Shown here: positions 5,995 to 29,112 of the stretch, piece after piece
Position numbering within the stretch: the stretch's first letter is position 1
Layout of the letters: each line of letters starts with the position of its first letter
Assembly (NCBI GenBank): GCA_021730285.1
Contig: CP082962.1
Span: 2,852,001 to 2,916,000 of the forward strand
Length of the DNA: 64,000 bases
Origin: Desulfovibrio sp. JY
GTDB taxonomy: Bacteria; Desulfobacterota; Desulfovibrionia; Desulfovibrionales; Desulfovibrionaceae
Reading direction: 5' to 3'
Made by a program: the position numbers and the translations under genes
Notes under the pieces: model-generated
What the model was told of the DNA's origin: nothing
Databases searched by the model: none
What the model saw: the letters and a program-made list of their open reading frames with translations, nothing else

Positions 5995-6505
5995 CGGGCG
6001 GGGGCTCTGCCCCCGTACCCCCGGCAGGGCGCTGCCCTGCACCCCACCGCCGGGCTCTGCCCGGACCCGCCGGGAGGCCATGGGCCCCCCGGACCCCCCT
6101 TCCGGTGTGCTTTGGCCAGGCTGGAGGTTTGGTTGGTTGGCGGAAGGGCGGAGAGTGGAAGATGGCGGCGGAATTTGTCGGGACGCTGCCGCCGCTTCGC
6201 GGCAGGCTCGTCCCAGGCAAATTCCGCCGCCACCACGCCGGTCGCCCCAAGGGGGCGACATTCGGAGAACATCTCTTCTTTTTTTAATGCGGCGCTTCGC
6301 CGCTGGCGCGGTTGTCGCCGCAATCGCGTCCGGCGTCGAGGGGCGTAAGCCCCTCGTGCCGCCGGGCCGATTGCGGCGACAAGCATTCGTCGTTCCGCCC
6401 CCCGACTCCACCTCCACCCACCATCCCAACCCGGTAAAAGGGGGTCCGGGGGACATCAAGTCCCCCGGCGGTGGGGGCCAGGGGAGGCAGAGCCTCCCCT
6501 GGCCG
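5992..6505. repeat. Family B multi-hairpin repeat, copy B1
   Basis: About 510 bases made almost entirely of successive inverted repeats. In order: GGGGGCTCTGCCCCC; GCAGGGCGCTGCCCTGC; CCGGGCTCTGCCCGG; a GGGCCC/CCGGG module; a ~70-base hairpin at 6163-6232; CGCCCC/GGGGCG; GGCGCTTCGCC; a ~75-base hairpin built on TGTCGCCGCAATCG; GGGGGACATCAAGTCCCCC; CAGGGGAGGC/GCCTCCCCTG. It fills the space between two convergent genes. The same modules appear in reverse order and orientation at 16459-16980. Confidence 0.9.
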
Positions 6506-6506
6506 T

Positions 6507-7370
6507 CTATCCTTCCTCCTCCGCGAACGCTTCCCTGGCCACGGCCAGGCCGTTGAGGGCGGAGGGGAAGCCGGCGTAGACGGCCATCTGGATGAGCACC
6601 TCGGTGATTTGTTCACGGCTGACGCCGACGCTGCGGGCGGCCTTGATGTGAACTTTGAGTTGCGGGGCCATGGTGCCCCGGGCTGTGGCGGCGGCGATCA
6701 TGGCGATTTCCTTTTGGGCCGGGGTGAGAACGGCGCGGGAGATGACGTCGCCGTAGGAGAAGTCGAGGATGAAGCCGGCCATGTCGGGTGCGATGTCGGC
6801 CAGGGAATCGACGACGCGTTGTCCGGCGGATTGGCTGGTGATGGCCAGGGCGGCGAGGCCGCGTGCGTGCCGGTCGGGATTTTCGGGCGCGGGCGGTGGC
6901 GTGGGGACGACGCCCTGGGCGGTGAAGACCTCGCGGGCGGCGGCCAGGGCGTTGAGCCCGGCGGGGAAGCCGGCGAAGACGGTGGTCACGTAGATGATGT
7001 CCACGATGGCTTGCGGCGTAAGTCCGGTGGCCAGACCGGCTTCGATGTGGAAGCGCAATTGGGGCGCGGCGTTGCCAAGGGCGGCCAGGGCGGCGATGGT
7101 GGCGGTCTGGCGCGAGGCCGGGTCCAGCCCGGGCCGGGTGAAGACGTCGCCGTAGCCGAATTCCACGACGAACCGGGCCATGTCCGGGGCGATGTCGGCC
7201 AGGCCATCCTGGACGGCCTGGGCTTTTTGGGGGGCCAGGGCGACAAGCGCCTTCCAGCCGCGTGCGTAGCGTTCGCTTTCCATGGTCGCACCTCCGCAAA
7301 GGGTTGTGGTTGTGAGGGTGAGCAAAAGGGCCAGGGCGGCCCGGATGCCGGTTACGGGTGATCGGATCAT
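6507..7370 (-). CDS. Exported protein with two carboxymuconolactone decarboxylase-like domains
   Basis: 287 residues: a signal peptide with hydrophobic core ALALLLTLTT ending near a Cys (a lipobox is possible but not canonical), then two homologous CMD/AhpD-fold domains (about 40-145 and 165-280). Each repeats the ARG..AL..FGYGDV or FSYGDV, QTATIAALAALG and AGFPAGLNAL or AGFPSALNGL pattern. The CxxC of AhpD peroxidases is absent from both, so a disulfide-reductase role is unlikely; gamma-carboxymuconolactone decarboxylase-like activity is only a family label. The ATG at 7370 has GGGAGG upstream; upstream in-frame extension runs through the operator region. It is divergent from a LysR regulator, which probably controls it. 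Confidence 0.85.
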   Translation of the reverse strand: MIRSPVTGIRAALALLLTLTTTTLCGGATMESERYARGWKALVALAPQKAQAVQDGLADIAPDMARFVVEFGYGDVFTRPGLDPASRQTATIAALAALGNAAPQLRFHIEAGLATGLTPQAIVDIIYVTTVFAGFPAGLNALAAAREVFTAQGVVPTPPPAPENPDRHARGLAALAITSQSAGQRVVDSLADIAPDMAGFILDFSYGDVISRAVLTPAQKEIAMIAAATARGTMAPQLKVHIKAARSVGVSREQITEVLIQMAVYAGFPSALNGLAVAREAFAEEEG

Positions 7371-7419
7371 GGTCGCCTCCCTGGGGTTGTTTCCGGCAGG
7401 GTAGGCGGGCTGGATTGAT

Positions 7420-7440
7420 ATGTGAAATATAATTTCACAT
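7420..7440. promoter_or_regulatory. Palindromic operator between the CMD-like gene and its LysR regulator
   Basis: ATGTGAAAT-ATA-ATTTCACAT is a perfect 9-base inverted repeat. It fits the T-N11-A core of a LysR box. The decamer TTGATATGTG occurs just before it and again at about 7446, next to the regulator start, so two spaced half-sites are likely. Its position between divergent genes suggests autoregulation plus control of the CMD-like gene; this is inferred. Confidence 0.7.
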
Positions 7441-7469
7441 TCTGATTGATATGTGGAAGATATCGATCC

Positions 7470-8363
7470 ATGGAATTGCGGGATTGTCGGTGTTTCGTGG
7501 CCGTGGCCGAGGAGCTGCATTTCGGCCGGGCGGCGGCGCGACTGGGCATGGCGCAGCCGCCGCTCAGTCAGCGGATTCGGGCGCTCGAGGCGGAACTTGG
7601 AGCGGCGCTTTTCGTGCGCACCAGCCGCATGGTGGCGCTGACTCCGGCCGGGGAGGCGTTTTGGCGCGAGGCGCGGGCGCTTCTGGCGCTGGCCGGAGAG
7701 GCGGCGGCGGTGCCACGGCGGGTGGCGGCCGGGCTTTGCGGGCGGCTCCGGGTGGGGTTCGTCAATCCGGCCATGGACGCGTTTTTATCCGCGACGCTGG
7801 CCATATTTCGGCAAAATGCCCCGGATGTGGAACTGGTGCTTCGGGAAATGGGCAGCCGGGAGCAGGGCGAGGCCTTGGCCGCCGGACGTCTGGATGTGGG
7901 GTTTCTGCGCCTTGGCGGGCCGGAGCCGCCGGGGGTGGAGGTGAGCGTCATTTCCCGGGAGCCGTATCTGCTGGCGGTGCCGGCCGGCCATGTCCTGGCC
8001 GGGAAGAAGCGGATCGCGCTGGCCGATCTTGGCGGGACAGCCATGATTTTGCCGCAACGGCGGCAGGCCTCGGGGCTTGTGGCGGCCATCGAGGCGGCGT
8101 TCGCGGCGGCCGGGAGCAGGCCGCGGGTGGTGCAGGAAGCGGCGTCCAAGTTCACCATGCTGTCGCTGGTCGCGGCCGGCGTGGGCGTGGCGCTGTTGCC
8201 GGCCTCGGTACGGGTGTGGCGGCGGCGTGGGGTGGTGTTCCGGGACCTTGAGCCGGGGTTGCCGGAGGTCTTGCTGGCGGCTGCCGTGCCCCGGGGGCGC
8301 GGAGATGCGGCAGTCGGGCGTCTGGTCGCCCTGGCCCGGGCCTGCGCTTCGGGCGATCAGTAG
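7470..8363 (+). CDS. LysR-family transcriptional regulator
   Basis: 297 residues. An N-terminal winged helix (residues 1-60) carries the family signature FGRAAARLGMAQPPLSQRI and LFVRTSRMVALTPAG. A periplasmic-binding-protein-like effector domain follows (about 88-290). The start chosen gives the canonical MELRDCRCFVAVAEELHF N-terminus; an in-frame ATG 24 bases upstream lies in the operator. It is divergent from the exported CMD-like protein and probably regulates it in response to a small molecule, not identifiable here. The stop overlaps the convergent yitT-like gene by 7 bases. Confidence 0.93.
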   Translation: MELRDCRCFVAVAEELHFGRAAARLGMAQPPLSQRIRALEAELGAALFVRTSRMVALTPAGEAFWREARALLALAGEAAAVPRRVAAGLCGRLRVGFVNPAMDAFLSATLAIFRQNAPDVELVLREMGSREQGEALAAGRLDVGFLRLGGPEPPGVEVSVISREPYLLAVPAGHVLAGKKRIALADLGGTAMILPQRRQASGLVAAIEAAFAAAGSRPRVVQEAASKFTMLSLVAAGVGVALLPASVRVWRRRGVVFRDLEPGLPEVLLAAAVPRGRGDAAVGRLVALARACASGDQ

Positions 8364-9208
8364 ATCTTGCGCCGGGCGAAGCCTTCTCCGAGCACGTTGA
8401 AGGTGTTTTCCACCACGAAGAAGGCGTTGGGGTCGTGCTTGAAGACGAGTTCCTCCAGGCGTTTGATCTGCACGGTGTTGGTGATGGTGAGGATGACCCG
8501 CTTGGATTTGCCGGTATAGGCGCCCCAGCCGTGGAGGAAGGTGGCCCCGCGCCGCAGCTTGTGGATGATTTCCCAGGCGATGGCGTCGGCCTGGTCGGAA
8601 ATGATGAAGACCATCTTGCGCTGGTTGAAAAGCGACAGGAAGTAGTCCATGACCTGGGAGTAGGTATAGGACAGGATGATGGAGTACAGGACCAGGGTCG
8701 GTTCGTAGAAGGCGAAGCCGGCGGCGAACACGGCCAGATTGAAAAAGAAATTGAATTGGCCGATGCGCAGGTTGTATTTCTGGTTGAGCCAGATAGCCAG
8801 GATGTCCGTGCCGCCGGCGGAGCCCATCGAGCGCAGCATGATGCCCGAGCCCGCGCCGAGGACCGCGCCGCCGAAAATGGCGGCCAGAAGCGGGTCGGCG
8901 ATGAGGACGCGTTCAGGCAGGACCTGCATGAAGAGGCTGACGATGCCCATGCCGAAACAGGTGTACAGGAAGAAGCGGCGCGACAGGCTGTGCCAGCCGA
9001 GCAGCAGCAGCGGCACGTTGAGCAGGAAGTAGAGCGGACCCGGACCGAAGATTCCGGTCAGGTAGTAGACGAGCAGGGCCAGGCCCGAGATGCCGCCGGA
9101 CATGAGTCCTTTGCCAACGGCGAATTCGTTGATGCCAAGGCTGAAGATCAGGCCCCCGAAAGTAAGCAGGCCGAGGTTCCAGGATACGGCGCGGATGTTT
9201 GTGGGCAT
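8357..9208 (-). CDS. YitT family membrane protein (DUF161/DUF2179)
   Basis: 283 residues. Five or six hydrophobic segments (residues ~10-195, including the LGINEFAVGKGLMSGGISGLA and GSAGGTDILAIWL signatures) are followed by a soluble DUF2179 domain (~200-283: VFIISDQADAIAWEII, RGATFLHGWGAYTGKSK). This is the usual architecture of the YitT/YpjC/YqfU family, whose transport substrate is not established. The ATG at 9208 has AGGGGG seven bases upstream. The 3' end overlaps the convergent LysR gene by 7 bases, with no repeat between them. Confidence 0.93.
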   Translation of the reverse strand: MPTNIRAVSWNLGLLTFGGLIFSLGINEFAVGKGLMSGGISGLALLVYYLTGIFGPGPLYFLLNVPLLLLGWHSLSRRFFLYTCFGMGIVSLFMQVLPERVLIADPLLAAIFGGAVLGAGSGIMLRSMGSAGGTDILAIWLNQKYNLRIGQFNFFFNLAVFAAGFAFYEPTLVLYSIILSYTYSQVMDYFLSLFNQRKMVFIISDQADAIAWEIIHKLRRGATFLHGWGAYTGKSKRVILTITNTVQIKRLEELVFKHDPNAFFVVENTFNVLGEGFARRKIY

Positions 9209-9348
9209 ATCCCCCTGTAGCCTTGCCGGCTTGCCCGGGCAAGGGGATTGTTGCCACTGCGGTGGGGTGGGTGTAGCCCTGGCTTGGCGTGGCCGACAAC
9301 CGACCGGACGTGCGGGATTTTTTAACATGGCGTGTGGTGAGCAAGCGT

Positions 9349-10044
9349 ATGGATGACGCCCTGCTGCAGCATCTCAAAGTCGCCTTGCTGGGGTATCTGG
9401 GCAAGGCGGTCGATTTCTGCCTGGGGCTGCTGGAAGCGGCCCTGGGCAGGCTCCTTGACGCGGCGGCCGCGCTGGCCGGCTGGACCGAGCACCTGCTTGC
9501 CCGAATCGCGGCCATGCCCTTGTGGATCACCATTCCGGCCGCCCTGGCCCTCATCGCCCTGGCGACCGCCTACGCCATGCGCCAGAAGCTCTACGACCGG
9601 CTCCTCCTTTATTACGATGTCTGGCTGCTGCGCGAAGGCTACCGCCGGCTGACGTTTTCGGTGCGTCGCGGCGCGGTGCGGCTGCGGCGGGTGCTCATGG
9701 CCCGGCCGGTGGCGCTGCCGGATCGCTTTGACGCCGTGGCGCTCTATGAGGCCGCGCCGGATCGCTATGCCGTGGCCTACGGCCCCGTCGACGGGACGGC
9801 CGAGGACGTGCGGCTGTACCGACGCGACAGACGCGCGGGCCTGCGGGACATGGGCGAGGACCTGATCCGGCATTTTCGGGCCAATGTGCACATGCTGCGC
9901 GCCGACGGGGAACTGCGGGCGCTTTTCGCCGTGCTCGATGCCCGGGACCAGGATTTCGCCGCCTGCCGGCCGGTGCTGCCCGGGGAGGAAGTGGAAAAGA
10001 GGGGGAAGATAAAGGAAGAAAGTGCGAGAGGGGAAACCCTTTGA
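9349..10044 (+). CDS. Unrecognised single-pass membrane protein, tail derived from a repeat
   Basis: 231 residues. An amphipathic N-terminal helix region is followed by one hydrophobic segment (about residues 58-76, WITIPAALALIALATAYAM) and a basic cytosolic-like domain (EGYRRLTFSVRRGAVRLRR and after). I do not recognise a family. The last dozen residues (KEESARGETL) are encoded inside repeat A2, and the TGA stop falls in the loop of its first hairpin, so the repeat has set the end of the protein. The ATG at 9349 is the most reasonable start; upstream in-frame codons reach into the divergent promoter of the YitT gene. Confidence 0.7.
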   Translation: MDDALLQHLKVALLGYLGKAVDFCLGLLEAALGRLLDAAAALAGWTEHLLARIAAMPLWITIPAALALIALATAYAMRQKLYDRLLLYYDVWLLREGYRRLTFSVRRGAVRLRRVLMARPVALPDRFDAVALYEAAPDRYAVAYGPVDGTAEDVRLYRRDRRAGLRDMGEDLIRHFRANVHMLRADGELRALFAVLDARDQDFAACRPVLPGEEVEKRGKIKEESARGETL

Positions 10045-10183
10045 AAAGGGTTCTCCCCTCTCGCGCTCTCCCCTTCCTAAATTTTTTACCTGTGAGGGGT
10101 TACGTCGGACATTCCCCCTTTATAGAGTCTTTGGAAAGGGGGTCCGGGGGGAGAACCTTTCTGCAAGAAAGGTTTCCCCCCGG
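10023..10183. repeat. Family A composite hairpin repeat, copy A2
   Basis: The first hairpin pairs GCGAGAGGGG with CCCCTCTCGC. A diverged linker ends AGTCTTTGGAAAGGGGG. The second hairpin pairs GAGAACCTTTCTGC with GCAAGAAAGGTTTCC. It overlaps the 3' end of the upstream coding sequence and stands between convergent genes. Confidence 0.83.
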
Positions 10184-10197
10184 TTCCTCCCTCGCGC

Positions 10198-10731
10198 CTA
10201 ACGGCGGACGTTGGACCTGTTGGTGCAGGTGACGAAGCGGGCGTTGCACTGGTTGTAGCACATGTTGCGCGATTGCCCGAAGGTGGCGTGGTTGCAGCGC
10301 TGGGCGCAGTCGGCCTGCATCTGGTTGCAGCGGGCCACGTCGGCGACCCTGGCCCGTTCGGACCGTCCGGGTTGCCGCACGACAGCGCCCGGGGGCACGA
10401 TCACCGACCCCGGAGGGGCGACCACCGGCGCACCGGGCTGGACCACGCCCTGGGAACGCGGCACGTACTTGGGGCGCGGCTTGTACCCCGGGGCCTTGGG
10501 CACGGGCGTGGTGGGCGCGGCTCTCGGGGGCTTGGGCACGGGTGCTGTGGGCGGGGTCACTTTGGGGACTGTGTTTCTGAATATGGGCTTGCCCGGCGCG
10601 TTGGGATTGACTGGCTGCCCGGGCGCGGGGCCGGACTGGAGCTGCACGAGCGGCTCGGCGGCAAGGGCCGGCGCGGCGGCGGGCAGGGTAAGCGCCAGGC
10701 AGAAAAGAAACGTCCTGATGCATGGCTGCAT
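10198..10731 (-). CDS. Secreted proline-rich protein with twin CX3C helical-hairpin motif
   Basis: 177 residues. Signal peptide (residues 1-25, cleavage after ALA), a long low-complexity stretch rich in Pro/Val/Lys (26-122), then a compact Cys domain. Its six cysteines are mirror-symmetric: Cys135-x6-Cys142-x3-Cys146-x11-Cys158-x3-Cys162-x6-Cys169. The inner CX3C-x11-CX3C spacing is the twin-CX3C pattern of disulfide-locked helical hairpins. A periplasmic or outer-surface protein with a Pro-rich spacer is the simplest reading. The function is not recognised. The ATG at 10731 follows AAAGGAGG. It converges on the preceding gene across repeat A2. Confidence 0.75.
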   Translation of the reverse strand: MQPCIRTFLFCLALTLPAAAPALAAEPLVQLQSGPAPGQPVNPNAPGKPIFRNTVPKVTPPTAPVPKPPRAAPTTPVPKAPGYKPRPKYVPRSQGVVQPGAPVVAPPGSVIVPPGAVVRQPGRSERARVADVARCNQMQADCAQRCNHATFGQSRNMCYNQCNARFVTCTNRSNVRR

Positions 10732-10833
10732 GGGCGAAAGCCTCCTTTGGCAAATGAAACATAATGCCGTTTGACAGCATAACGCGATCCTGCGAGAAAA
10801 TACATCCGCCAAGGGATATGCAGGGAGTATGCC

Positions 10834-11583
10834 GTGGATGATGCCGCGCTTGAAAAGGCGGCCGGGCTTCTGGCCCGGTCGAGGACCGCCATTGCCCTGA
10901 CCGGAGCCGGCATTTCGGTCGCCAGCGGCATTCCCGATTTCCGCAGTCCCGGCGGCCTGTGGGACCGCTACGACCCCATGGCCGTGGCCACGGTGACGGC
11001 CCTTGACCGTGCCCCGCGCCAGGTCTGGGAGTTTCTGCTCGACGCCATATCGGTCATCGGCCCGGCAAGGCCCAATCCGGCCCACGACGCCCTGGCCCGG
11101 CTGGAGGCGGCCGGGCGGCTCTCCGGCATCGTGACCCAAAATATTGACGGGCTGCACCAGGCCGCCGGCTCGAAAAACGTGGTCGAATTTCACGGTGGCA
11201 TGGAGCGTTATTTCTGCATGGGCTGCGGCCGGGCCCACGCCCCGGAAACGGCGCTATCGCTGACCCGGGCGGACATCCCCTGGCGCTGCGGAGCCTGCGG
11301 CGGGGTGGTGCGGCCGGATATCGTGTTCTTCGGTGAGGCCATACCACTTGACGCCCTTGATAAAAGCGGTCAATTGGCCTTGGCCGCTGACATGATTATC
11401 GTGGCCGGAACATCGGGGGAGGTCGCCCCGGCCAACCTCCTGCCCAGGGAGGTCAAGGCCAAGGGCGGAACGGTCGTGGAAATCAATCTGACGGAAAGCG
11501 CCATAACGGGGCTCGCCGACGTCTCGATCTTCGCCGCGGCGGAGATCGCCCTGCCGGCCCTGGCCGGGCGCGCACTTTCCTAA
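10834..11583 (+). CDS. cobB: NAD-dependent protein deacylase (sirtuin)
   Basis: 249 residues. It removes acyl groups from lysine using NAD+. Seen in the sequence: GAGIS, GIPDFRSPGGLW, TQNIDGLH, the catalytic His in EFHGG, and a zinc ribbon of CMGC and CGAC pairs. The late NAD motif reads GTSGEVAPA where the family usually has GTSLxVxPA. The Tyr-x-x-Arg pair that marks desuccinylase-type (class III) sirtuins is not found at the expected place (WEFLLDAI), so deacetylation of a hydrophobic acyl type is more likely. The start is GTG at 10834 after GGGAG. It runs into tolQ after 29 bases and may be co-transcribed. Confidence 0.92.
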   Translation: MDDAALEKAAGLLARSRTAIALTGAGISVASGIPDFRSPGGLWDRYDPMAVATVTALDRAPRQVWEFLLDAISVIGPARPNPAHDALARLEAAGRLSGIVTQNIDGLHQAAGSKNVVEFHGGMERYFCMGCGRAHAPETALSLTRADIPWRCGACGGVVRPDIVFFGEAIPLDALDKSGQLALAADMIIVAGTSGEVAPANLLPREVKAKGGTVVEINLTESAITGLADVSIFAAAEIALPALAGRALS

Positions 11584-11612
11584 CCTCTTACATTTCCCAC
11601 AGGTGGGTCGCA

Positions 11613-12365
<753 letters not shown>

Positions 12366-12368
12366 GCC

Positions 12369-12809: not shown

Positions 12810-12850
12810 GATCCGGACGCGTCGCCCGGCGTGTCACAGCGAGTGCCCCC

Positions 12851-14101
12851 ATGCGCGTTCTTGGCTGGATATTTTCCATCTTCCTGCACCTGACGGTGGT
12901 GCTGGCAAGCCTCGTCTTCATCAATATCGAGCCGGTCAAATTCCAGCTCAACGTTCCCGTGTACGAAGTCGACCTCGTCTCGCTTGGCGCGCCCGGCCTG
13001 CCCCCCGGCGAGGCCGGCCTGCCGCCGGGGCCCAAGGGTCCGGGAGACCGGCCCCAGCCCGGTCCGCCCGAACCCGAGGGAGGACCCGGCGATGCCGCCG
13101 AGGCGCAACTGCCCGAGCCGGCCAAGGCTCCGGCCGAACCGGCCAAGCCCACCACACCCGAACCCGTGGCCGCCGTGCCCCAGGCGCCGGAACCGGAGCC
13201 CAAATCCGAGCCCAAGACCGAACCGAAGCCCGAGCCCAAGGTCGAGCCCAAGACGGATTTTAAAAAGCTCGAGGAAGCGACGAAGAAGGCCGAGGAAATC
13301 CAAAAGAAGGCCGCCGAGGCCAAAAAGATCGAGGAAATCAAAAAGGCCGAGTTGCTCAAAAAGGCCGAGGATGCCAAGAAGGCCGAAGAGAAAAAGAAAG
13401 CCGACGAGGCCAGGAAAGCCGAAGAGGCCAAGAAGAAGGTAGAGGAAGCTAAAAAGGCCGAGGAAGCCAAGAAAAAGGCGGACGAGGCGAAAAAGAAGGC
13501 CGAGGACGCCAAGAAGGCTGAAGAGGCCAAGAAGGCCGCTGACGCCAAAAAAGCCGAGGACGCGAAAAAAGCCGCTGACGCCAAGAAAGCGGCGGAAGCG
13601 GCCAAGGCGGCCGCGGCGGCCAAGGATGCGGCTTCCGCCAAGGACGTCCTGGCCAAGGCGCTCAAGGAGGCCAAGGCCAAGGCCGGACAGGGCGGCGGCA
13701 AAGGCACGGGCAAGGGCTCGGCTGGCGGTGATCCCCTGGCCAAGGCCCTGGCGGACGCCCGTCGCATGGCCGGCGGAGGCGGCGGTGGCGGTGGCAGCGG
13801 AGGAGGCGGCGGCGGCAGCGGCGTCACCATGGGGGTCTACGCCCAGATCGTCAACCGCGAGGTCAAAAAGAACTGGCGCTTCCCGCAAAGCGGCGCCCGG
13901 CAGCCGCTTATAGCCGTCGTGGAAGTGCACATCGACAAGAACGGGCGTATCCTCGAATATCGGCTGGTGCAGTCCTCCGGCCAGACCAGTTTCGACGCTT
14001 CGACCGTCAAGGCCGCGTCCGAGACGGACACGCTGCCGCCGCCGCCGCCGGGGCTGAACGTCCTGCAACTGCGGTTCAGCTCCCAGGAGCTTGGGCGGTA
14101 G
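12851..14101 (+). CDS. tolA: TolA-like protein with TonB C-terminal domain
   Basis: 416 residues. One N-terminal membrane anchor (LGWIFSIFLHLTVVLASLVF), a Pro/Gly/Glu-rich stretch (~45-135), a very long Lys/Ala/Glu helical rod of KKAEEAKK-type repeats (~137-265), a Gly-rich hinge (RMAGGGGGGGGS..GGGGGGS, ~300-325) and a C-terminal TonB/TolA fold (~330-416: VYAQIVNREVKKNWRFP, IAVVEVHIDKNGRI). This matches TolA, which spans the periplasm and contacts Pal/TolB at the outer membrane. The ribosome binding site is weak. It lies between tolR and tolB. Confidence 0.9.
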   Translation: MRVLGWIFSIFLHLTVVLASLVFINIEPVKFQLNVPVYEVDLVSLGAPGLPPGEAGLPPGPKGPGDRPQPGPPEPEGGPGDAAEAQLPEPAKAPAEPAKPTTPEPVAAVPQAPEPEPKSEPKTEPKPEPKVEPKTDFKKLEEATKKAEEIQKKAAEAKKIEEIKKAELLKKAEDAKKAEEKKKADEARKAEEAKKKVEEAKKAEEAKKKADEAKKKAEDAKKAEEAKKAADAKKAEDAKKAADAKKAAEAAKAAAAAKDAASAKDVLAKALKEAKAKAGQGGGKGTGKGSAGGDPLAKALADARRMAGGGGGGGGSGGGGGGSGVTMGVYAQIVNREVKKNWRFPQSGARQPLIAVVEVHIDKNGRILEYRLVQSSGQTSFDASTVKAASETDTLPPPPPGLNVLQLRFSSQELGR

Positions 14102-14271
14102 AAATTCGATGGACGAGAGTTTTTTCCCCGGCCGGCATTTGCCTGGGACCCGGGAACACGGTATAGGCCGAAACGTGGGAATACCCATGCCGGCCATGAG
14201 GGCAGGCTCCCCGGCGCGGCGTCGGGGCTTAACGACAAACCGGCAAGCAGCGAGCTTCAGGGACTTGGACA

Positions 14272-16369: not shown

Positions 16370-16398
16370 TTTCTGTTGATTTCACGCCCACAAGGCGC

Positions 16399-16435: not shown

Positions 16436-16458
16436 GTGTGTGTGTACGGATGCGGTTA

Positions 16459-16980
16459 CAGGGGAGGCCGGCAGGGGAGGCTCTGCCTCCCCTGGACCCC
16501 ACCGCCGGGGGACTTGATGTCCCCCGGACCCCCTTTTACCGGGTTGGGATGGTGGGTGGAGGTGGAGTCGGATGGCGGAACGACGAATGCTTGTCGCCGC
16601 AATCGGCCCGGCGACACGAGGGGCTTACGCCCCTCGACGCCGGACGCGATTGCGGCGACAACCGCGCCAGCGGCGAAGCGCCGCATTTTAAGAACAAACA
16701 GTTTTTCTGAAATGTCGCCCCAACGGGGCGACCGGCGTGGTGGCGGCGGAATTTGCTTGGGACGAGCTTGTCGCGAAGCGACATGCACCGTCCCGACAAA
16801 TTCCGCCGCCATCTTCACCCAACCGACCCCCGCCCACCAACCCTGCTCCCGCCCAACCAAAGCACACCGGAAGGGGGGCCCGGGGGGCCCATGGCCTCCC
16901 GGCGGGTCCGGGCAGAGCCCGGCGGTGGGGTGCAGGGCAGCGCCCTGCCGGGGGTGCGGGGGCGGAGCCCCCGCCCGTTA
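16459..16980. repeat. Family B multi-hairpin repeat, copy B2 (inverted relative to B1)
   Basis: About 520 bases carrying the same chain of hairpin modules as B1, in reverse complement. From left: CAGGGGAGGC/GCCTCCCCTG; GGGGGACTTGATGTCCCCC; the long TGTCGCCGCAATCG hairpin; GCGCCAGCGGCGAAGCGCC; CGCCCCAACGGGGCG; the long hairpin 16741-16811; then the GGGCCC and CCGGGCAGAGCCCGG modules; GCAGGGCAGCGCCCTGC; and GGGGGCGGAGCCCCC. Its right edge is the TAA stop of pgpA. It fills the gap between convergent pal and pgpA. Confidence 0.9.
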
Positions 16981-17895: not shown

Positions 17896-17924
17896 CGCTC
17901 CGGCGGACTCTTTTCGATTCTACT

Positions 17925-18668: not shown

Positions 18669-18692
18669 AAGTGTTAGGATGAGGAAGAGAAT

Positions 18693-18838
18693 GCGAGAGG
18701 GGAACCCTTTTTGAAAAAAGGGTTCCCCTCTCGCGTTCTCCCCTCCCAAAAACTTTCAACGGTGACAAGCTGTTGCCGGTAAAAGTCTTTGGAAAGGGGG
18801 CCTGGGGGGAAACTTTTCTGCAGAAAAGTTTCCCCCCG
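18693..18838. repeat. Family A composite hairpin repeat, copy A3 (most complete)
   Basis: The clearest copy. A GCGAGAGGGGAACCC/GGGTTCCCCTCTCGC hairpin, then GTTCTCCCCTCCC and AAAAACTTTCAACGGTGACA, then GTAAAAGTCTTTGGAAAGG, and finally a GGGGGGAAACTTTTCTGC/GCAGAAAAGTTTCCCCCC hairpin. It lies between convergent genes. It serves as the reference for the site split by the IS110 element at 39.3 kb. Confidence 0.88.
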
Positions 18839-18844
18839 GTCTCT

Positions 18845-20592: not shown

Positions 20593-20597
20593 ATGGT

Positions 20598-22326: not shown

Positions 22327-22379
22327 GGGGCGCACGGTTAGCTGTTTACGACAGACTGATTTTGATCCATTATGACGCC

Positions 22380-23276
22380 ATGTTACGCAAAATATCCGCA
22401 AACGGCAATCCCGGCCCGGCACCGGGGGCGGCTTCCGATCCGATGGCCGGCCAGGGACGGGCGGCCGCCGGGCTTTTGGCCGTCACGGCGCTTTTGTGGA
22501 GTACCGGGGGGCTTGCCATAAAGCTCGTGCCCATGCCTCCCATGGCGGTCACGGGCGGGCGCAGTCTGCTTGCCGCACTGCTGCTTGTGGCGCTTTTTCG
22601 GAGCAGGCTCGACTTTCGTCCGACAAAGCCCTTTTTGTGCGCGGCCCTGGGCTATGCCGGCCTGCTTGTCACCAACGTGGTCGCCACTCGGCTGACAACA
22701 GCCGCCAACGCCATCCTGCTGGCCTACACCGCGCCGGTCTACGTGGCGCTTTTGGCTCCGGCGGTGCTCGGCGAACGCACGCGCCCGGCGGACTGGGCCT
22801 TTGTCGCGGTCACGGTGGGGGGCATGGCGCTTTTTTTCCTGGACAGGCTGTCGCCGGAAGGCTTCTGGGGCAACGTGCTGGCCGTGGGCACGGGGCTGTC
22901 CTACGCGGTTTTCACCCTCGGCATGCGGGCCGGCCGGGCGGGATCGCCGGTTTCGGCGGTCATTGCCGGCCATTTGCTGACCGCCGCCGTGGGCCTGCCC
23001 TTTCTGGTGCGCGAACTGCCGCTTTCCGGGGAGGCGCTTTTGGGGCTGTCCTATCTCGGCATCGTGCAGCAGGGGCTGTCGTTGGCGCTTTACGTCTGGT
23101 GCATCAAGCGGTTGCGGGCCTTGACCGCGATTTGCATCATGACCCTGGAGCCGATTTTCAACCCGGTGTTCGTCGCCCTGGGCTACGGTGAACTGCCCGG
23201 CAAATGGGCCATGGTCGGCGGCATGGTGGTTGTCGGCGCGGTGACGCTGCGCAGTCTGGCCGCCGCGCGTCGGTAG
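22380..23276 (+). CDS. EamA/DMT-family transporter
   Basis: 298 residues with about ten membrane helices in two EamA halves. Family features: LLAVTALLWSTGGLAIKLVP at the start, ILLAYTAPVYVALLAPAVLGERTR at the end of the first half, and LEPIFNPVFVALGYGELPGKWAMVGGMVVV in the second. Such proteins export or import metabolites (amino acids, purines and others); the substrate is unknown. The ATG at 22380 is divergent from the CYTH gene, with about 50 bases between. Confidence 0.9.
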   Translation: MLRKISANGNPGPAPGAASDPMAGQGRAAAGLLAVTALLWSTGGLAIKLVPMPPMAVTGGRSLLAALLLVALFRSRLDFRPTKPFLCAALGYAGLLVTNVVATRLTTAANAILLAYTAPVYVALLAPAVLGERTRPADWAFVAVTVGGMALFFLDRLSPEGFWGNVLAVGTGLSYAVFTLGMRAGRAGSPVSAVIAGHLLTAAVGLPFLVRELPLSGEALLGLSYLGIVQQGLSLALYVWCIKRLRALTAICIMTLEPIFNPVFVALGYGELPGKWAMVGGMVVVGAVTLRSLAAARR

Positions 23277-23306
23277 GCTGTCCGCGCCCGGCCCGGCGGA
23301 AATACG

Positions 23307-23729
23307 CTATTCGGTAAATCCTTTTTCCCGCATGGCCTCGGCCTTTACAAACTTTGCCATGCCTGTCCGCATGTTGCTGAAGCCCTGTTTTCGATAAAAG
23401 CCTTCTTTCCCGGGGGCGGCATAGAGAATGACATTGCACCCGGCAACGGCGTCCAGGAGGTTTCGCATGATCATGGCGCCGATTTTCCGGCCCTGGTATT
23501 CCGGCAGGACCGCGCAGTCATATATTGCGGCCTGATAGGCCCCATCGGAAATCGCCCGACCAAATCCGATCAGCTTCCCCGCATCGTAAATAAACACGGT
23601 TGCCTGGCTCGCTTCAAACGCTTTGGCATGGACTTCCGGCGCATAGGAGGCCATGCCGACGCGTTTGAGAATATCCGCAATGGCTTGCCAGTCGACGCCG
23701 GAGCATTCATTTATAGTTTGTAATTGCAT
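23307..23729 (-). CDS. GNAT-family N-acetyltransferase
   Basis: 140 residues, a single GNAT domain. The acetyl-CoA binding motif reads VLPEYQGRKIGAMIM, preceded by KLIGFGRAISDGAYQAAIYDCAV and followed by NVILYAAPGKEGFYRKQGF, which is typical. The acceptor is unknown. It converges on the EamA gene with a 30-base gap and marks the left edge of the AT-richer island. Confidence 0.9.
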   Translation of the reverse strand: MQLQTINECSGVDWQAIADILKRVGMASYAPEVHAKAFEASQATVFIYDAGKLIGFGRAISDGAYQAAIYDCAVLPEYQGRKIGAMIMRNLLDAVAGCNVILYAAPGKEGFYRKQGFSNMRTGMAKFVKAEAMREKGFTE

Positions 23730-23858
23730 TCTATTTCCTTTTGAATTCGCGAGACAAGCTCCTCATACGAACTGGCAACCGGAATTGGAAGATTTATCTT
23801 GAATGCATAGCATGGGAATTTTTACGAAAATGGCGCACGCCAGCGCCTGCAAGGAGAT

Positions 23859-24293
23859 TCAGGCCAGCTTCATGTGCAGTAAGGGAAAGGGCTTTCCCTG
23901 GCCATCGACCGATGAACGTCCGATGCGTCGGAAACCAATGTGCTCATAGAATGCGATTGCCTGCGGATTCTGCTCGTTTACATCAACGTAGGCAATATCC
24001 ATATTTTCGATTGCATGCTTGCACAGAAAAGAACCGATGCCTTGCCCTCTGTTTTGGGGCAACACAAAGAGCATTTCAAGTTTCTTCTCGGAGACGCCGC
24101 AGAAGCCAAGAATGTTGCCTTGCTCATTTTTGACGCATCGTAATTTTACAGCATCAAAATATTGCTCAAGAAGCAATGGCTTTAAAAAGGCAATATCTGC
24201 ATCTTTCAGGAAATGATGCGTCGCCCGAACGGAAGATTCCCATACTTCCACCAATTCGGGATAGTCTTTTTTGTCAGCATATTTGATCTTCAT
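23859..24293 (-). CDS. GNAT-family N-acetyltransferase
   Basis: 144 residues. A complete GNAT domain with LEMLFVLPQNRGQGIGSFLC as the acetyl-CoA loop and NEQNPQAIAFYEHIGF as the last signature, like YiaC/PhnO-size acetyltransferases. The ATG follows GGAGGAAAG. Codon and base use are clearly AT-richer than in the core genes, consistent with acquisition. A short open frame upstream ends with an ATGA overlap onto this start. Confidence 0.9.
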   Translation of the reverse strand: MKIKYADKKDYPELVEVWESSVRATHHFLKDADIAFLKPLLLEQYFDAVKLRCVKNEQGNILGFCGVSEKKLEMLFVLPQNRGQGIGSFLCKHAIENMDIAYVDVNEQNPQAIAFYEHIGFRRIGRSSVDGQGKPFPLLHMKLA

Positions 24294-24433
24294 GCAACTT
24301 TCCTCCAAGCGGATACCTTGAAACTCTTCCGACAAGGGAATTCTGTTTCCTTTGAAACAAGAGCATCCAAACGTATGAGAAAATCCAGCAGTTCGCCAAG
24401 GGAAATTTCATGACGTCGATCAAGGTTGTGTCT
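24290..24433 (-). pseudogene. Possible remnant of an upstream coding sequence
   Basis: A 47-codon frame without a credible start, bounded by a stop at its upstream end. It encodes a helical, protein-like stretch (HEISLGELLDFLIRLDALVSKE). Its TGA overlaps the ATG of the GNAT gene by four bases (ATGA), as genuine operon neighbours often do. This suggests the 3' end of a gene that has lost its front. It is weak evidence; it may be chance. Confidence 0.25.
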
Positions 24434-24678
24434 CTATAACCGTCTTGTTCAATTGTAGGCGACCTTGCGACTCGCGCCTGGTGGGAGCTTTAGTGGGAAT
24501 TGGGGGCGCATCCGTTCTTGGATACGTCACTACTCCTATTCTTACCTATTCCATTGTACTTTATTCATGTTGTGTTCTCGTTGTCAAGCAAGCAACTCCT
24601 TGAATATAAATATTTTTGTGTATTACTGAAAGTATGGGCAAGGATTTTGACCTGAATGTTTTGGGAGGAAAAGAGCGT
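24434..24678. other. AT-rich intergenic stretch in the accessory island
   Basis: About 245 bases, the most AT-rich of the window, between divergent genes. It contains several TATA-like hexamers, but I cannot single out a promoter. No RNA gene or repeat is recognised. Confidence 0.4.
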
Positions 24679-25368
24679 ATGAAACAGCAGCTGACCAGGA
24701 AAGGTATCAAATATCTTCTGGCACCATTTCGCTGGACCTTATTCATGATGATCGTATTTTTTGTCGCTGCGGGAAGATTGGATATCCCCAGGGCATGGCT
24801 TGCTTTCGGCCTTCATTTTATTGGAGCGGTGTTGGGGGCGTTGCTCATGTATCGCTTCGCGCCTGAACTGGCGAATCAGAGAGCGTCGGCCGGGCATGGA
24901 ACGAAAGGTTGGGACAAAGCGATCCTGACGATCTATTTCTTTCTGTTGCTGGTGGGGATTCCGCTTACGGCAGGATTGGATGTCGGGAGATATCAGTGGT
25001 CCGAGTTGCATGACATGGGTCTTGGGCTTATATGCTATCTTCTTTTCTTCCTTCTCTTCTACTGGGCAATGCTGACAAATAAATTTTTCGAGGGGACCTC
25101 TCGAATTCAGACGGATCGAGATCATAGGGTCATTCGTTTTGGCCCGTATGCGTATGTGCGACATCCCGGTTATCTCGCAATGCTCTTCGCCAGCGTGTCG
25201 GATGCGTTGATCATCGGTTCGCTCTATGCCTTGATCCCGAGCTGCCTTGCCGTCGGCGTCACGATTGTGCGCACAAGCCTTGAGGATAAAATGCTCCGGA
25301 GTGAATTGGACGGTTACGCCGAATATGCCGCGACAGTAAAATATCGCTTGATTCCTGGCCTATGGTAG
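24679..25368 (+). CDS. Isoprenylcysteine carboxyl methyltransferase-like membrane protein
   Basis: 229 residues with five membrane segments. The C-terminal half carries the ICMT/PEMT-type signature GPYAYVRHPGYLAMLF followed by the acidic ED(K) segment (TSLEDKMLRSELDGYAEYA), which binds S-adenosylmethionine in this family. Bacterial members methylate lipids or unknown small molecules. A GGGAGG precedes the ATG. It belongs to the AT-richer block and has no operon partner. Confidence 0.85.
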   Translation: MKQQLTRKGIKYLLAPFRWTLFMMIVFFVAAGRLDIPRAWLAFGLHFIGAVLGALLMYRFAPELANQRASAGHGTKGWDKAILTIYFFLLLVGIPLTAGLDVGRYQWSELHDMGLGLICYLLFFLLFYWAMLTNKFFEGTSRIQTDRDHRVIRFGPYAYVRHPGYLAMLFASVSDALIIGSLYALIPSCLAVGVTIVRTSLEDKMLRSELDGYAEYAATVKYRLIPGLW

Positions 25369-25623
25369 ATGGCGTCAGCTCGCCTCGGAAATGCTTTTTG
25401 GGGGGAGTCGAGGGCTTTCGGCTCCCAGAGCGTTTCGGTGTCTTCAACTTCTTCGGCGCTCTGAGAACCCGGCCCAGTCATGGACCGAGAAAACGGGATC
25501 GCGGCTTTGCATCAGTCCCGGAGAGCCAGCGGAACCCTTTGAGGGCATCCGCTCTGATTTGACAAATTCGGGATGGAAAAATTATGGATCGATCTTACAC
25601 ATAGCTCATGCAGGACCCATACA
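25369..25623. other. Intergenic stretch in the accessory island
   Basis: About 255 bases between two plus-strand genes. No convincing frame, terminator or promoter. A purine-rich stretch lies near the ATG at 25624. Confidence 0.35.
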
Positions 25624-26259
25624 ATGTTTGACTACTCTTTCGGCCATTGGTCGACTTTTTTTCTCGCCGCTTTTTTGCTGAATATTTCACCAGGCCCGGA
25701 TATGGCCTTTATTTTGAGCCATACGGTGAAAGGCGGGAAAAAAGCCGGGACCGCCGCGATGTTTGGGATTTGGACAGGAGCGTTCTGTCACGTCCTGCTG
25801 GCCGCATTGGGGCTCACGGCGATCGTCGCCACTTCCGCCACGGCCTTTTCCGTCGTCAAGTGGGCTGGCGTCGCCTATTTGCTCTGGCTCGGCGTACACG
25901 CCCTTCGTTCCGACGGCGGCTCGCTGCTCATAGACAAGAAGGCCAAGCCCAAAAGTATCGGTGCGGTGTTTCGGCAAGGCGTTTTTATTGATTTGCTCAA
26001 TCCAAAAGTCGCCACCTTTTTTCTGGCTTTTCTGCCCCAGTTTGTCGTGAACGGCGCGGGTCCCGTCTGGGCGCAACTCATGATCCACGGCGTCCTGATC
26101 ATTGCCGTCGCCGTGTTTGTGGAGCCTCCGATAATTCTGCTGAGCGACAGGGTCGCGGAAAGATTGCGCCAAAGCCATTCCCTCAGACTTTGGCTGGACC
26201 GCGTTCTCGGGCTCGTGCTCGTTTCTCTTGGAATCAAGCTGGCAATGTCCGAGCGGTGA
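25624..26259 (+). CDS. LysE/RhtB-family amino-acid exporter
   Basis: 211 residues with six membrane helices. Family signatures: LLNISPGPDMAFILSHTVKGGKKAG at the start and GVFIDLLNPKVATFFLAFLPQF in the middle. Proteins of this family export amino acids such as lysine, threonine or homoserine. The substrate cannot be read from the sequence. No regulator is adjacent. The ATG at 25624 gives the usual N-terminal length. Confidence 0.92.
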   Translation: MFDYSFGHWSTFFLAAFLLNISPGPDMAFILSHTVKGGKKAGTAAMFGIWTGAFCHVLLAALGLTAIVATSATAFSVVKWAGVAYLLWLGVHALRSDGGSLLIDKKAKPKSIGAVFRQGVFIDLLNPKVATFFLAFLPQFVVNGAGPVWAQLMIHGVLIIAVAVFVEPPIILLSDRVAERLRQSHSLRLWLDRVLGLVLVSLGIKLAMSER

Positions 26260-26556
26260 ATCGACCACTGCGCGGTTCGTGGAAAATCCTGCGGATGTAC
26301 GGTTTTTTCAGCCTCTCCGCGGAACGAGAATACACCAAGATACTGAGACCTCTAATACACGAGGCAGGGGTAAGCCGACGACGTTGATCAGAATGGTAAA
26401 GTGGTAACCACTTGTCGTCGATTAACTTTGACTGCACCAGATGCCGTTGAGTGGGGAGTTGCGTGGGAGGTCTCTGGGCGCAACTCCTTGTGTTTTTGCC
26501 GCATTATTTTATTAGTCTTGAGAAGTGGTTGAGCTAGGCATAGCCCGCAACATATT
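26260..26556. other. Intergenic stretch in the accessory island
   Basis: About 297 bases between the LysE gene and the next gene. GTGGTAACCAC near 26398 is a short perfect palindrome. Otherwise I see no gene, repeat family member or clear promoter. Confidence 0.35.
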
Positions 26557-28203
26557 ATGACCAAGCGCCTTATTTTCATACCGGTAGTTCTCTTCTTCGT
26601 TATGGTCCTGTTCCTCGCAGGAGTCATATTTCACACCAAGGGGACTATCCGTGAATCCTTCAGATTGAATCAGTTGCGCAAAAGCGAGGGATATTACCTT
26701 GCTGAGTTCGAATGGAACATGCTTGCTTGCGTCAAGTATCTTGACACCGGGCAGTACGTTCGAGCCCTGACTGTCATGCATGCAATACATGACAGTCTTT
26801 CTGACCCCAAGCTGTTGGCACGGGCTCCGGCTTCGCCCGAGCCGCTGGAACGGCTGCGCTTCTACCAGTCCATGCAGAATCCGAGGACAGGAGCCTTCAT
26901 CAGAGACGATTCCCTGCCCTTGTTCACCTACATCGGCCCAACCGCGAACATGATCACCCTTATCGAGGAACTGTCAGCCAAAGCGAAAAAACCGTTTGAG
27001 CTGAAATACTCACTTTCATTTCTCGATAAGATCAACACTCCTGAACGGCTCAAGGAATTACTTGATGACGCTTCCCGCGTCGGTTGGATAGGAGCTCAAT
27101 TCAAAACTCCCTATGTCTGCGTTGCGGAACTCGGAGAGTTGGCGGCGAGTTGCGAACGGCTGGGAATCTACGAGTTTACTCCGGAGTGGAAAAAGTCCCT
27201 GTTCGATTGGTTTTACGAAAATCAGGATCCCGACACGGGACTTTGGGGACCTCGCTCGCGGTCTGACGACAGTCTGCTTCATGGCGGTTCTCTCACGGAG
27301 AGCGAACGGGTGATCAAGATGTTTGTGGATCGGGAGGGCAACCAGATTCACCATGCCTACCCTCTCAGATATGTGGATAACATCATTGCATCCTCGCTGG
27401 AAAAACTCGCCACCCCTATGCCCGACGATCTTGACGAACTCCACGAATGGATTTTGGCGCGGGACCATGGGACGCGGTTCATCACGCGGTATCTTTGGAG
27501 TTTCGCATCGTTGGAAAGCAGGGAAAAGGCAAAGGGCCTGATGGAGGATTTTATACAGCTCCGATTCAAAAAGTACTATGCTGAAAAGGACGGAGCATTC
27601 AGCTTATACCCCAATTCGGAAACCGCCGATCTGGACGGTACCGGCGAGGCCATAGGGATGTTCGGCTACCTGGGCATACTGGACAGCCTCAAGCAGCAAC
27701 GTTTGTGGGGCGACTACGAAACGATTGTTGAAAACTTCGGTCGGCGAATAATCGCCAGGACATCCCAGGTGTCTTTCGAGTCAGTCAGCGGCTATTCCGG
27801 GGTCAACTCGATACGGGTTTACATTGCTCCCCCGGGTACGCGTTTCTTGGACAAGGTTGCTCTGATCTACTATCCAAGGAAAACCGTCGTGCCGGACGCA
27901 GTGCAAATCTTGGCAAATGTTAATGATTGGCTCGGTAAGACCCCGCAGCAGATGGGGAACTGGGTAACAAAGGACAGTATTCGAAAATTACTTGCAAACA
28001 TTGCCGTCCAATCCGTCCCGACATTCATGTACCCTCCCGTTGATGAGGTGAACAGAATTCTCCAGGATAATGGGCAGGTAGTCTTGGTCGGATTCGATCT
28101 ACTGCAAATTCCCCTCTGTATGATCGCATATCAGGGTGAAGGTCGAGAGAGAGAGAGAACTCCGAATTCAAAGCCCCGACGGGACAACTACACCCCAGGA
28201 TGA
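26557..28203 (+). CDS. Membrane-anchored protein, possibly an alpha/alpha-toroid; function unknown
   Basis: 548 residues. A hydrophobic N-terminal anchor (residues 4-25) precedes a large, mostly helical domain expected outside the cytoplasm. Repeated motifs resemble the QW-type turns of alpha/alpha-toroids (terpene cyclase/prenyltransferase-like fold): FYQSMQNPRTGAF (103-114), WFYENQDPDTGLWG (218-231) and KDGAFSLYPNSE (344-355). I recognise no catalytic DxDD or metal-binding set, so the enzyme class is open. Base composition is AT-richer than the core. The C-terminal tail (GEGRERERTPNSKPRRDN) is low-complexity and lies over a GA-rich tract that overlaps the end of maf, suggesting the original 3' end was lost at a junction. 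Confidence 0.6.
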   Translation: MTKRLIFIPVVLFFVMVLFLAGVIFHTKGTIRESFRLNQLRKSEGYYLAEFEWNMLACVKYLDTGQYVRALTVMHAIHDSLSDPKLLARAPASPEPLERLRFYQSMQNPRTGAFIRDDSLPLFTYIGPTANMITLIEELSAKAKKPFELKYSLSFLDKINTPERLKELLDDASRVGWIGAQFKTPYVCVAELGELAASCERLGIYEFTPEWKKSLFDWFYENQDPDTGLWGPRSRSDDSLLHGGSLTESERVIKMFVDREGNQIHHAYPLRYVDNIIASSLEKLATPMPDDLDELHEWILARDHGTRFITRYLWSFASLESREKAKGLMEDFIQLRFKKYYAEKDGAFSLYPNSETADLDGTGEAIGMFGYLGILDSLKQQRLWGDYETIVENFGRRIIARTSQVSFESVSGYSGVNSIRVYIAPPGTRFLDKVALIYYPRKTVVPDAVQILANVNDWLGKTPQQMGNWVTKDSIRKLLANIAVQSVPTFMYPPVDEVNRILQDNGQVVLVGFDLLQIPLCMIAYQGEGRERERTPNSKPRRDNYTPG

Positions 28204-28764
28204 CAACACTTCTACCAGCCTTGCCAGGGGCAACCCCACGACGTTGGTGTACGAGCCGTTGATCGCGGTGACAAACGCCGCCGCCTTGCCCTGGATGGCG
28301 TAAGCCCCGGCCTTGTCCATGGGCTCGCCGGTCGCCACGTAAGCGGCGATGGCCACATTGGAAAGCGCCGCCATGGCCACGTCCGTGGACACGGTGAATA
28401 TCTCCGGCTCCGGGCCGCAGCCGAAAATCGCGCAGCCGGTCACCACCTGATGCGTGCGGCCGGAAAGCAGCCCCAGCATGCGTTCGGCGTCGGCCGCATC
28501 GCGCGGCTTGCCCAAAATCACATGCCCCACGGCCACCACCGAATCCGCGCCGATGACCGCCGCTTCCGGATGCTCCCGGGCCACAGGCGCGGCCTTGAGC
28601 CGGGCCATGCGCGCGGCATAGGCCGACGGCAACTCGCCCATGTCCGGTTCGGGTTCCTCGGCCGGACTCGGAACGACCGAAAACGGCACCCCCGCCAAAT
28701 CAAGCAACTCGCGCCGGCGTGGTGACGTCGAGGCCAGAATGATGCGTCGCTGTGTCGTGTACAT
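28168..28764 (-). CDS. maf: Maf-family nucleotide pyrophosphatase
   Basis: 198 residues. Maf proteins hydrolyse non-canonical or surplus nucleoside triphosphates (dTTP/UTP-type). The signatures are LASTSPRRRELL, GADSVVAVGHVILGKP, HQVVTGCAIF and DKAGAYAIQGKAAAFV. The usual GADT is GADS here, a mild change at the catalytic acidic segment. The ATG at 28764 gives the standard N-terminus; upstream in-frame codons lie in repeat A5. It overlaps the preceding plus-strand gene by 36 bases, at the right edge of the AT-richer island. Confidence 0.93.
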   Translation of the reverse strand: MYTTQRRIILASTSPRRRELLDLAGVPFSVVPSPAEEPEPDMGELPSAYAARMARLKAAPVAREHPEAAVIGADSVVAVGHVILGKPRDAADAERMLGLLSGRTHQVVTGCAIFGCGPEPEIFTVSTDVAMAALSNVAIAAYVATGEPMDKAGAYAIQGKAAAFVTAINGSYTNVVGLPLARLVEVLSSWGVVVPSGL

Positions 28765-28782
28765 AGTATGATGTTGGAAGAG

Positions 28783-28860
28783 CCGGGGGAGGGAACCCCT
28801 TTTTGAAAAAAGGGGTTCCCTCCCCCGGACCCCCACCCTCCCGAAAAACTTTAAAAGGGG
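28783..28860. repeat. Family A hairpin, copy A5
   Basis: CCGGGGGAGGGAACCCC pairs with GGGGTTCCCTCCCCCGG around a T/A loop, followed by part of the linker (CCGAAAAACTTTAAAAGG). The arms differ from other copies but remain complementary. It adjoins repeat B3. Confidence 0.75.
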
Positions 28861-28886
28861 AATAACGGCTCAAATTCCATCTTTAT

Positions 28887-29112
28887 TCGCCCCGAAGGGG
28901 CGACGGCGTGGTGGATGCGGCATTTGCCGGGACGCGCCTGCCGCGAAGCGGCGGCATCGTCCCGATAAATGCCGCATCCATCTTCCACACATCCGCCTGA
29001 CCGCCAGCCAACCCAGCCTCCGCCCGGCCAAAGCCGAGAAGGGGGGACCGGGGGGCCCGTGGCCCCCCGGCGAAGGGGTCCAGGGGAGGCCGCGCCTCCC
29101 CTGGACCCCGGA
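28887..29112. repeat. Family B repeat, copy B3 (short form)
   Basis: Contains CGCCCCGAAGGGGCG, the long hairpin at 28912-28980 with inner CTGCCGCGAAGCGGC, the GGCCCGTGGCCCCCCGG module and CCAGGGGAGGC/GCCTCCCCTGG. In the long hairpin, three positions differ from B1/B2 on one arm and the facing three positions on the other arm differ to match. The left modules of B1/B2 are missing. Confidence 0.85.

What the first reader, a model, noticed from the sequence alone, without database searches (positions are those of the whole stretch)
6163..28980. Compensatory base changes in the long hairpin of family B repeats
The ~70-base hairpin occurs at 6163-6232 (B1), 16741-16811 (B2) and 28912-28980 (B3). 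B1/B2 arms read GGCGGCGGAATTT with AAATTCCGCCGCC; the B3 arms read GGATGCGGCATTT with AAATGCCGCATCC. Three positions on one arm differ and the three facing positions differ to match. The inner hairpin shows the same: TGCCGC/GCGGCA in B1 and B3 versus TGTCGC/GCGACA in B2. Paired substitution in three copies is direct evidence that the fold, not the sequence, is kept. I know of no named element with this structure.
Basis: seen in the sequence. Interest (0 to 1): 0.82.

Follow-up and report, generated by a model that had tools for sequence, protein, structure and literature searches.

The report
Self-matching hairpin repeats after bacterial genes
A sulfate-reducing bacterium carries dozens of copies of a long hairpin just downstream of its genes; the two arms change together so exactly that the pairing is clearly kept, but the pattern looks at least as much like one arm being copied from the other in DNA as like the usual signature of a selected RNA fold.

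Summary
The hairpin has at least 44 full copies in the window's genome and 51 in a close congener; of 119 family genomes sampled with strict filters, matches came from one genus only (Solidesulfovibrio, inferred). Covariation is strong: 11 of 37 pairs vary on both arms in 88 sequences, 29 of 37 across 11 other congeners; no shuffle of 500 reaches this. 42 of 44 copies have an element at the same site in the congener. At 36 aligned shared sites, 24 Watson-Crick pairs became another Watson-Crick pair on both arms.

The inference "so the RNA fold is selected" is weaker. G-U wobbles are rare (0 of 509 outer-stem cells across species) and do not exceed A-C overall, 15 of 18 outer-stem double changes are transversions, and one congener copy has an exactly inverted apical segment. 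This fits arm copying in DNA (template switching), or a fold needed on both strands. Persistent bulges and invariant stem positions show selection as well.

The hairpin is the core of a multi-hairpin block, usually 97-180 nt past a stop codon and mostly between convergent genes. It is REP/BIME-like, but no RAYT-type transposase was found and it lacks a U tract. Likely role: a two-way 3'-end barrier. This is not shown.

The parts
6163..6232 (+). B1 long hairpin (core)
6241..6259 (+). B1 short 3' hairpin after the CCACGCC linker
   Evidence: third helix
5996..6157 (+). B1 5' modules (GGGGGCTCTGCCCCC-type hairpins, then a G-rich stretch), starting just after the stop codon of the DUF1786 gene that ends at 5994
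6289..6303 (-). short hairpin of the facing C unit
6312..6382 (-). long hairpin of the facing C unit
16741..16811 (-). B2 long hairpin
16714..16732 (-). B2 short 3' hairpin
16591..16661 (+). long hairpin of the C unit facing B2
16670..16684 (+). short hairpin of the C unit facing B2
28912..28980 (-). B3 long hairpin
28887..28903 (-). B3 short 3' hairpin
28785..28826 (.). T/A-flanked perfect hairpin next to B3, where B1 and B2 have a C unit
   Evidence: family D2

Best explanation
The hairpin is the core of a REP/BIME-like composite element at the 3' ends of genes, seen so far in one genus: stop codon, GC-rich small hairpins, G-rich stretch, long hairpin, CCACGCC linker, short hairpin (shown). 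In 54 of 93 copies a mirror-image unit of a second family (C) faces it downstream (shown); that it serves the other gene is inferred. The arms are kept as near-exact Watson-Crick partners (shown). The coupled changes arise at least partly in the DNA, by one arm being copied onto the other during replication (template switching), with selection keeping certain stem and bulge positions (inferred). Most likely role: a two-way 3'-end barrier that stops or caps transcripts running in from either side, so that pairing matters on both strands (inferred, about 45%).
For: Copies and conservation. Same sites in the congener: 37 of 44 plus 5 more. Double changes at 36 aligned shared sites: 25 (24 of them Watson-Crick to Watson-Crick) against a permutation mean of 6.8, maximum 15 of 2000; in the outer stem 19 at the true partner against 0-3 at partners slid by 1-4. 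The C unit shows the same in a smaller set: 5 double changes at 19 site pairs, permutation mean 0.8, maximum 4 of 2000. No wobble signature overall. Inverted apical segment. Context: 26 of 44 copies lie between convergent genes and 1 of 44 between divergent genes, against 10 and 18 of 59 background gaps of at least 200 nt. Terminator-like states where B is missing: at 2 of 4 resolved sites the own genome has a T-tailed hairpin (L177, L180).
Against: No transcript data. The core's short hairpin is not followed by a U tract: 0 of 93 copies have 5 or more T in a row there, 5 have four. Internal loops and an apical bulge persist in most copies, which unchecked template switching should erase. Only 1 of 93 copies has an inverted loop, and it is in a draft assembly. 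Among single changes at shared sites G-U is not rarer than A-C (12 v 11; outer stem 8 v 5), and between convergent genes G-U is 9 v 6 if pair 29-60 is left out. No phylogeny-aware null (R-scape) was run. Gene orientation comes from my own gene caller.
Confidence: 0.5

Rival explanations
1. A selected RNA fold in the 3' UTR (stabiliser or protein-binding RNA), with ordinary stepwise compensatory substitution on the sense strand.
For: Strong covariation; the left gene reads into the block for 78 of 93 copies; apical sequence alike in many congener copies; single changes at shared sites are G-U 12 v A-C 11, outer stem 8 v 5.
Against: A sense-strand RNA should tolerate G-U over A-C; observed in all copies 12 v 23 (12 v 14 without pair 29-60), 1 v 8 between tandem genes (1 v 6 without that pair), 0 v 3 in the outer stem across species. 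Outer-stem double changes are 15 transversion to 3 transition. Cells are related, so these counts are weak one by one.
Confidence: 0.2
2. A REP-like single-strand DNA hairpin, spread by a transposase or recombinase acting on folded DNA (RAYT-like), now lost or unrecognised.
For: On the reverse strand GGC-GTGG, sometimes GGC-GCGG, lies at the foot of the B and C stems, like the REP tetranucleotide; bulged stem; many copies; B or B+C present or absent as a unit at orthologous sites.
Against: No Y1_Tnp in the own genome. Six other genus genomes have a Y1_Tnp match; the two proteins read (G005, G003) look like IS200 TnpA by recall, with only short inverted repeats near them, one of 15-nt arms at the start of the G005 gene, unlike B; the G001 and G009 stretches were fetched but not examined. 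42 of 44 sites are shared, so little recent movement. Polarity not set: in none of 12 other congeners were the two flanks listed side by side (drafts, one flank not listed for G012).
Confidence: 0.18
3. Neutral palindromes: no function, kept perfect only by template switching and spread by recombination.
For: Double changes, apical-type switching and inverted loop.
Against: Invariant positions and persistent bulges; strong position and orientation bias.
Confidence: 0.12

Closest known systems
REP / BIME / REPIN elements (PMC3116915, PMC8266576; passages seen)
   Same: Interspersed intergenic palindromes in many copies, facing units, conserved short motif at the stem foot, bulged stem (one REP group), compensatory changes reported for REPINs
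   Different: 70-nt hairpin plus linked short hairpin, foot motif GTGG/GCGG on one side only, no Y1_Tnp (hence no TnpA_REP/RAYT) found in the genome, narrow range of distances from stop codons
Intrinsic (bidirectional) transcription terminators (defining features recalled)
   Same: GC-rich hairpins at 3' ends, mostly between convergent genes; a T-tailed hairpin present at 2 of 4 resolved sites that lack B
   Different: No U tract directly after the short hairpin; far longer; a repeated family
Template-switch-maintained hairpins (PMC8794818; abstract and passages seen)
   Same: Coupled arm changes and an inverted loop
   Different: Described there from reconstructed histories of RNA genes, where 61.0% of instantaneous changes were of transition type; here 3 of 18 in the outer stem, 9 of 24 over all stems

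Membership tests
REP/REPIN | Many extragenic palindromic copies | tested here: met
   At least 44 full copies in the own genome; no called gene overlaps any of 93 cores by more than 20 nt
[quoted passage not shown]
   GTGG or GCGG at the foot on one strand, but the palindrome is about 70 nt
REP/REPIN | Cognate RAYT / TnpA_REP transposase in the genome | tested here: not met
   PF01797: 0 matches in the own genome, while the same search rings in 5 of 14 control genomes and in 51 of 149 family genomes
REP/REPIN | Mobility | tested here: inconclusive
   Presence/absence as units at 4 resolved sites, polarity unknown
Intrinsic terminator | GC-rich hairpin | tested here: met
Intrinsic terminator | U tract directly after the hairpin | tested here: not met
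   Last 6 bases of the core plus next 12: 0 of 93 copies with a T run of 5 or more, 5 with four; B1 has a T run about 20 nt further on
Intrinsic terminator | Stops transcription | not testable with these tools
   no RNA data
Known Rfam RNA | Match at the gathering score | tested here: not met
   Whole window: only a tRNA elsewhere; 5990-6560 at E up to 1: 12 matches, all far below gathering
Template-switch hairpin | Loop inversion with both arms retained | tested here: met
   1 of 93 copies, L119 against its ortholog L014
Integron attC site | Core boxes and IntI | not tested
   considered only

The most novel reading that the evidence does not exclude
Most of the covariation in this family is made by mutation, not by selection on RNA: arms copy each other during replication at dozens of loci, so standard covariation tests would call an RNA structure even if the RNA fold had no function.
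Probability: 0.4. Interest if true: 0.75.

Novelty: new variant of a known kind. Interest (0 to 1): 0.55.

Why it matters
Covariation is widely taken as proof of a functional RNA. Here 36 aligned orthologous copies in two close species allow arm changes to be counted directly at separate loci, and the changes show little of the wobble signature expected for a sense-strand RNA. The family could serve as a natural assay for how often replication template switching keeps hairpins perfect. It also points to a 3'-end element in one genus for which my paper searches found no description.

Tried and rejected
RAYT-driven REP: no Y1_Tnp in the own genome; the two congener proteins read look like IS200 TnpA by recall, and one search found only short inverted repeats near them (15-nt arms at the start of the G005 gene; a 22-nt imperfect palindrome in L148). 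L149 and L150 were fetched for the same purpose and not examined. Known RNA family: none. Plasmid similarity: in the 20 of 23 records listed, only the neighbouring coding stretch matched. Whole-hairpin gene conversion as the cause of double changes: not supported, though apical types do switch at some sites. A claim that coupled change exceeds any neutral rate was dropped: the upstream module diverges by 0.189 between orthologs, so pair 9-78 (10 Watson-Crick double changes in 36 sites) could be reached by mutation plus selection. Polarity of dimorphic sites: not resolved. C family: a first count used an automatic structure with spurious outer pairs and gave G-U 110, A-C 35; recounted on the hairpin columns without one constant T-G pair it is G-T 10, A-C 4 on the strand read with B, which is G-U 4, A-C 10 on the C unit's own strand. 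Searches for a prior description: 'Desulfovibrio' with 'repetitive extragenic palindromic' (3 papers), with 'intergenic repeats' and 'hairpin' (0 papers), 'Desulfovibrio magneticus' with 'repeat' and 'intergenic' (3 papers), 'Solidesulfovibrio' with 'genome' (15 of 28 listed), and a general palindrome/terminator search (15 of 30 listed); no title or abstract start in those listings describes this element, and those papers were not opened.

Full report
B1 is 6163-6232 (plus strand), B2 is 16741-16811 and B3 is 28912-28980 (both minus-strand copies). Each folds at about -60 to -65 kcal/mol, and none of 200 shuffles is as stable.

Copies. A BLAST search of the own genome scored 40 of 121 candidate places; 68 matches fall on 40 distinct copies. 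A covariance model built from 39 of these 40 (L013, truncated, left out) finds 97 matches in the own genome with 150 of 6707 candidates scored, many of them the reverse strand of the same hairpins or the related C unit; 44 are full copies at 83 bits or more, a lower bound. 13 of 14 genus genomes, own included, have a match at E 0.001. In the congener G005, 51 places score 93 bits or more (150 of 6788 candidates scored), of which 49 were fetched and aligned. In 119 family genomes 5 have a match at E 1e-6, all in one genus of 44; that search used stricter filters that lose weak matches. The genus is probably Solidesulfovibrio: two congener contigs carry that name in a named collection, identified by equal contig length; this is inference.

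Covariation. In 88 distinct sequences 11 of 37 pairs have changes on both sides (117 cells) and 96.7% of cells pair; no shuffle of 500 reaches this, and slid controls pair at 38-55%. In 11 other congeners (40 matches, 37 distinct rows, including reverse-strand rows that I did not remove for that count) 29 of 37 pairs covary. These two alignments were fitted to the model and lean towards its structure; the first was not, and gives 8 of 37.

Orthologous sites. 37 of 44 copies have a copy at the same place in G005. Five more were found: L010, L009, B3 and L123 at contig ends, and L041 inside a contig, so 42 of 44; L025 and L033 were not traced. At 36 aligned sites (L013 dropped; [quoted passage not shown] permutation mean 6.8, maximum 15 in 2000. 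In the outer stem: 18 Watson-Crick double changes (15 transversion, 3 transition), 1 other double change and 20 single changes; the 6 in the inner stem are transitions, and part of these go with apical-type switches. The co-change is at the true partner: 19 cells, against 0-3 at slides of 1-4. Sites with outer-stem double changes do not have more inner differences (2.42 v 3.42, 12 v 24 sites); L021 and L075 differ at three outer-stem pairs and at no inner base. At the B3 and L041 sites, not among the 36, G005 has a different lower stem on both arms with the apex kept.

RNA or DNA. A sense-strand RNA should tolerate G-U. Over 88 distinct rows, pairs 37-52 and 90-124 left out, counts are G-U 12, A-C 23, other 16, Watson-Crick 3023. 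Nine of the A-C cells are one pair, 29-60; without it 12 v 14. By context (all rows) convergent 9 v 11 and tandem 1 v 8, or 9 v 6 and 1 v 6 without that pair. Single changes at shared sites are G-U 12, A-C 11 (outer stem 8 v 5), which does not favour my reading. In other congeners (34 distinct sequences, reverse-strand rows dropped) the outer stem has 506 Watson-Crick, 0 G-U and 3 A-C of 509 cells, and all stems (two pairs left out) 2 G-U, 8 A-C, 12 other of 1179. Cells are not independent. In L119 the apical 36-38 bases are the reverse complement of those of its ortholog L014, with arms, linker and flanks (94-95% over 1.9-2.0 kb) in place; 92 of 93 copies have the other orientation. Loop inversion and multi-base coupled change are footprints listed for template switching by Monttinen and Loytynoja (PMC8794818: abstract and passages), who report that 61.0% of instantaneous changes in their RNA genes are of transition type. 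A two-way RNA function is an alternative: G-U on one strand is A-C on the other, so both would be purged. Against free-running template switching, internal loops and an apical bulge persist in most copies, and 6 of 15 outer-stem pairs never vary.

Anatomy and place. Upstream of the hairpin lie GC-rich small hairpins and a G-rich stretch; downstream come CCACGCC (with variants) and a short hairpin. A facing unit, C, has the same plan with other stems; it lies within 420 nt downstream of 54 of 93 copies: 43 of 59 convergent, 5 of 18 plus-plus tandem and 6 of 13 minus-minus tandem copies. The own genome has at least 40 C places, 40 of 95 candidates scored. C hairpins at 19 shared sites show 5 double changes (4 Watson-Crick) and 10 single ones, permutation mean 0.8, maximum 4 of 2000. 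By my gene caller the left gene reads into the block in 78 of 93 copies, ending 97-180 nt before the core. In the own genome 26 of 44 copies are between convergent genes, 17 tandem, 1 divergent; background gaps of at least 200 nt are 10 convergent, 31 tandem, 18 divergent of 59, from the window and seven other stretches that include some B sites. The genes beside B1-B3 are ordinary: DUF1786, CMD, OmpA-family, PgpA, Maf, ATC_hydrolase family.

Dimorphic sites. Twelve of the 49 fetched G005 copies had no partner copy among those of the own genome. Seven regions were looked at by synteny. At four the B-less state is clear: two lack a B+C block of about 390 and 490 bases (L180, L178), one lacks B only (L179), and one has a simple hairpin with a T6 tail followed by AT-rich DNA (L177). 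At L180 the remaining outer small hairpin has A and T tails that the G005 allele lacks, so 2 of 4 have a canonical-looking terminator. A fifth (L124) has the C unit, with only the right part matching; two were not resolved; five were not examined. Polarity is unknown.

Verdict. Real, strongly paired, restricted to one genus in the sample, REP/BIME-like in kind but without a Y1 transposase in the genome, and with several DNA-level signs in how its arms change. Function is inferred, not shown.

Noticed in passing
window 1906-1953, 18687-18734, 39194-39241, 48836-48883 and others: A second family of T/A-flanked hairpins (GAGAGGGGAACCCTTTTTT...AAAAAAGGGTTCCCCTCTC type), 9 members at 60% identity or more, which look like two-way intrinsic terminators.
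   Followed up: no
window 18691-18790 and 39198-39297: A 100-nt repeat pair, 91% identical.
   Followed up: no
window 13187-13785: Short tandem repeats, apparently coding and rich in Lys, Glu, Pro and Ala codons (by eye).
   Followed up: no
L177:4193-5844: AT-rich inserted DNA in the own genome directly after a T-tailed hairpin, at the site where the congener has a B+C block.
   Followed up: partly
L119:2501-2604: Exact inversion of the apical segment of the hairpin relative to the orthologous copy L014.
   Followed up: yes
G005 contig ends (L184, L185, L186, L189): Several draft contigs of the congener break at these elements, so assemblies may undercount them.
   Followed up: partly
L147:1953-2402: A single Y1_Tnp protein in the congener G005, IS200 TnpA-like by recall, none in the own genome.
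   Followed up: partly
L188:2058-2200 (G005:C43): A more diverged hairpin of the same plan (long hairpin, linker, short hairpin) with quite different arms.
   Followed up: no
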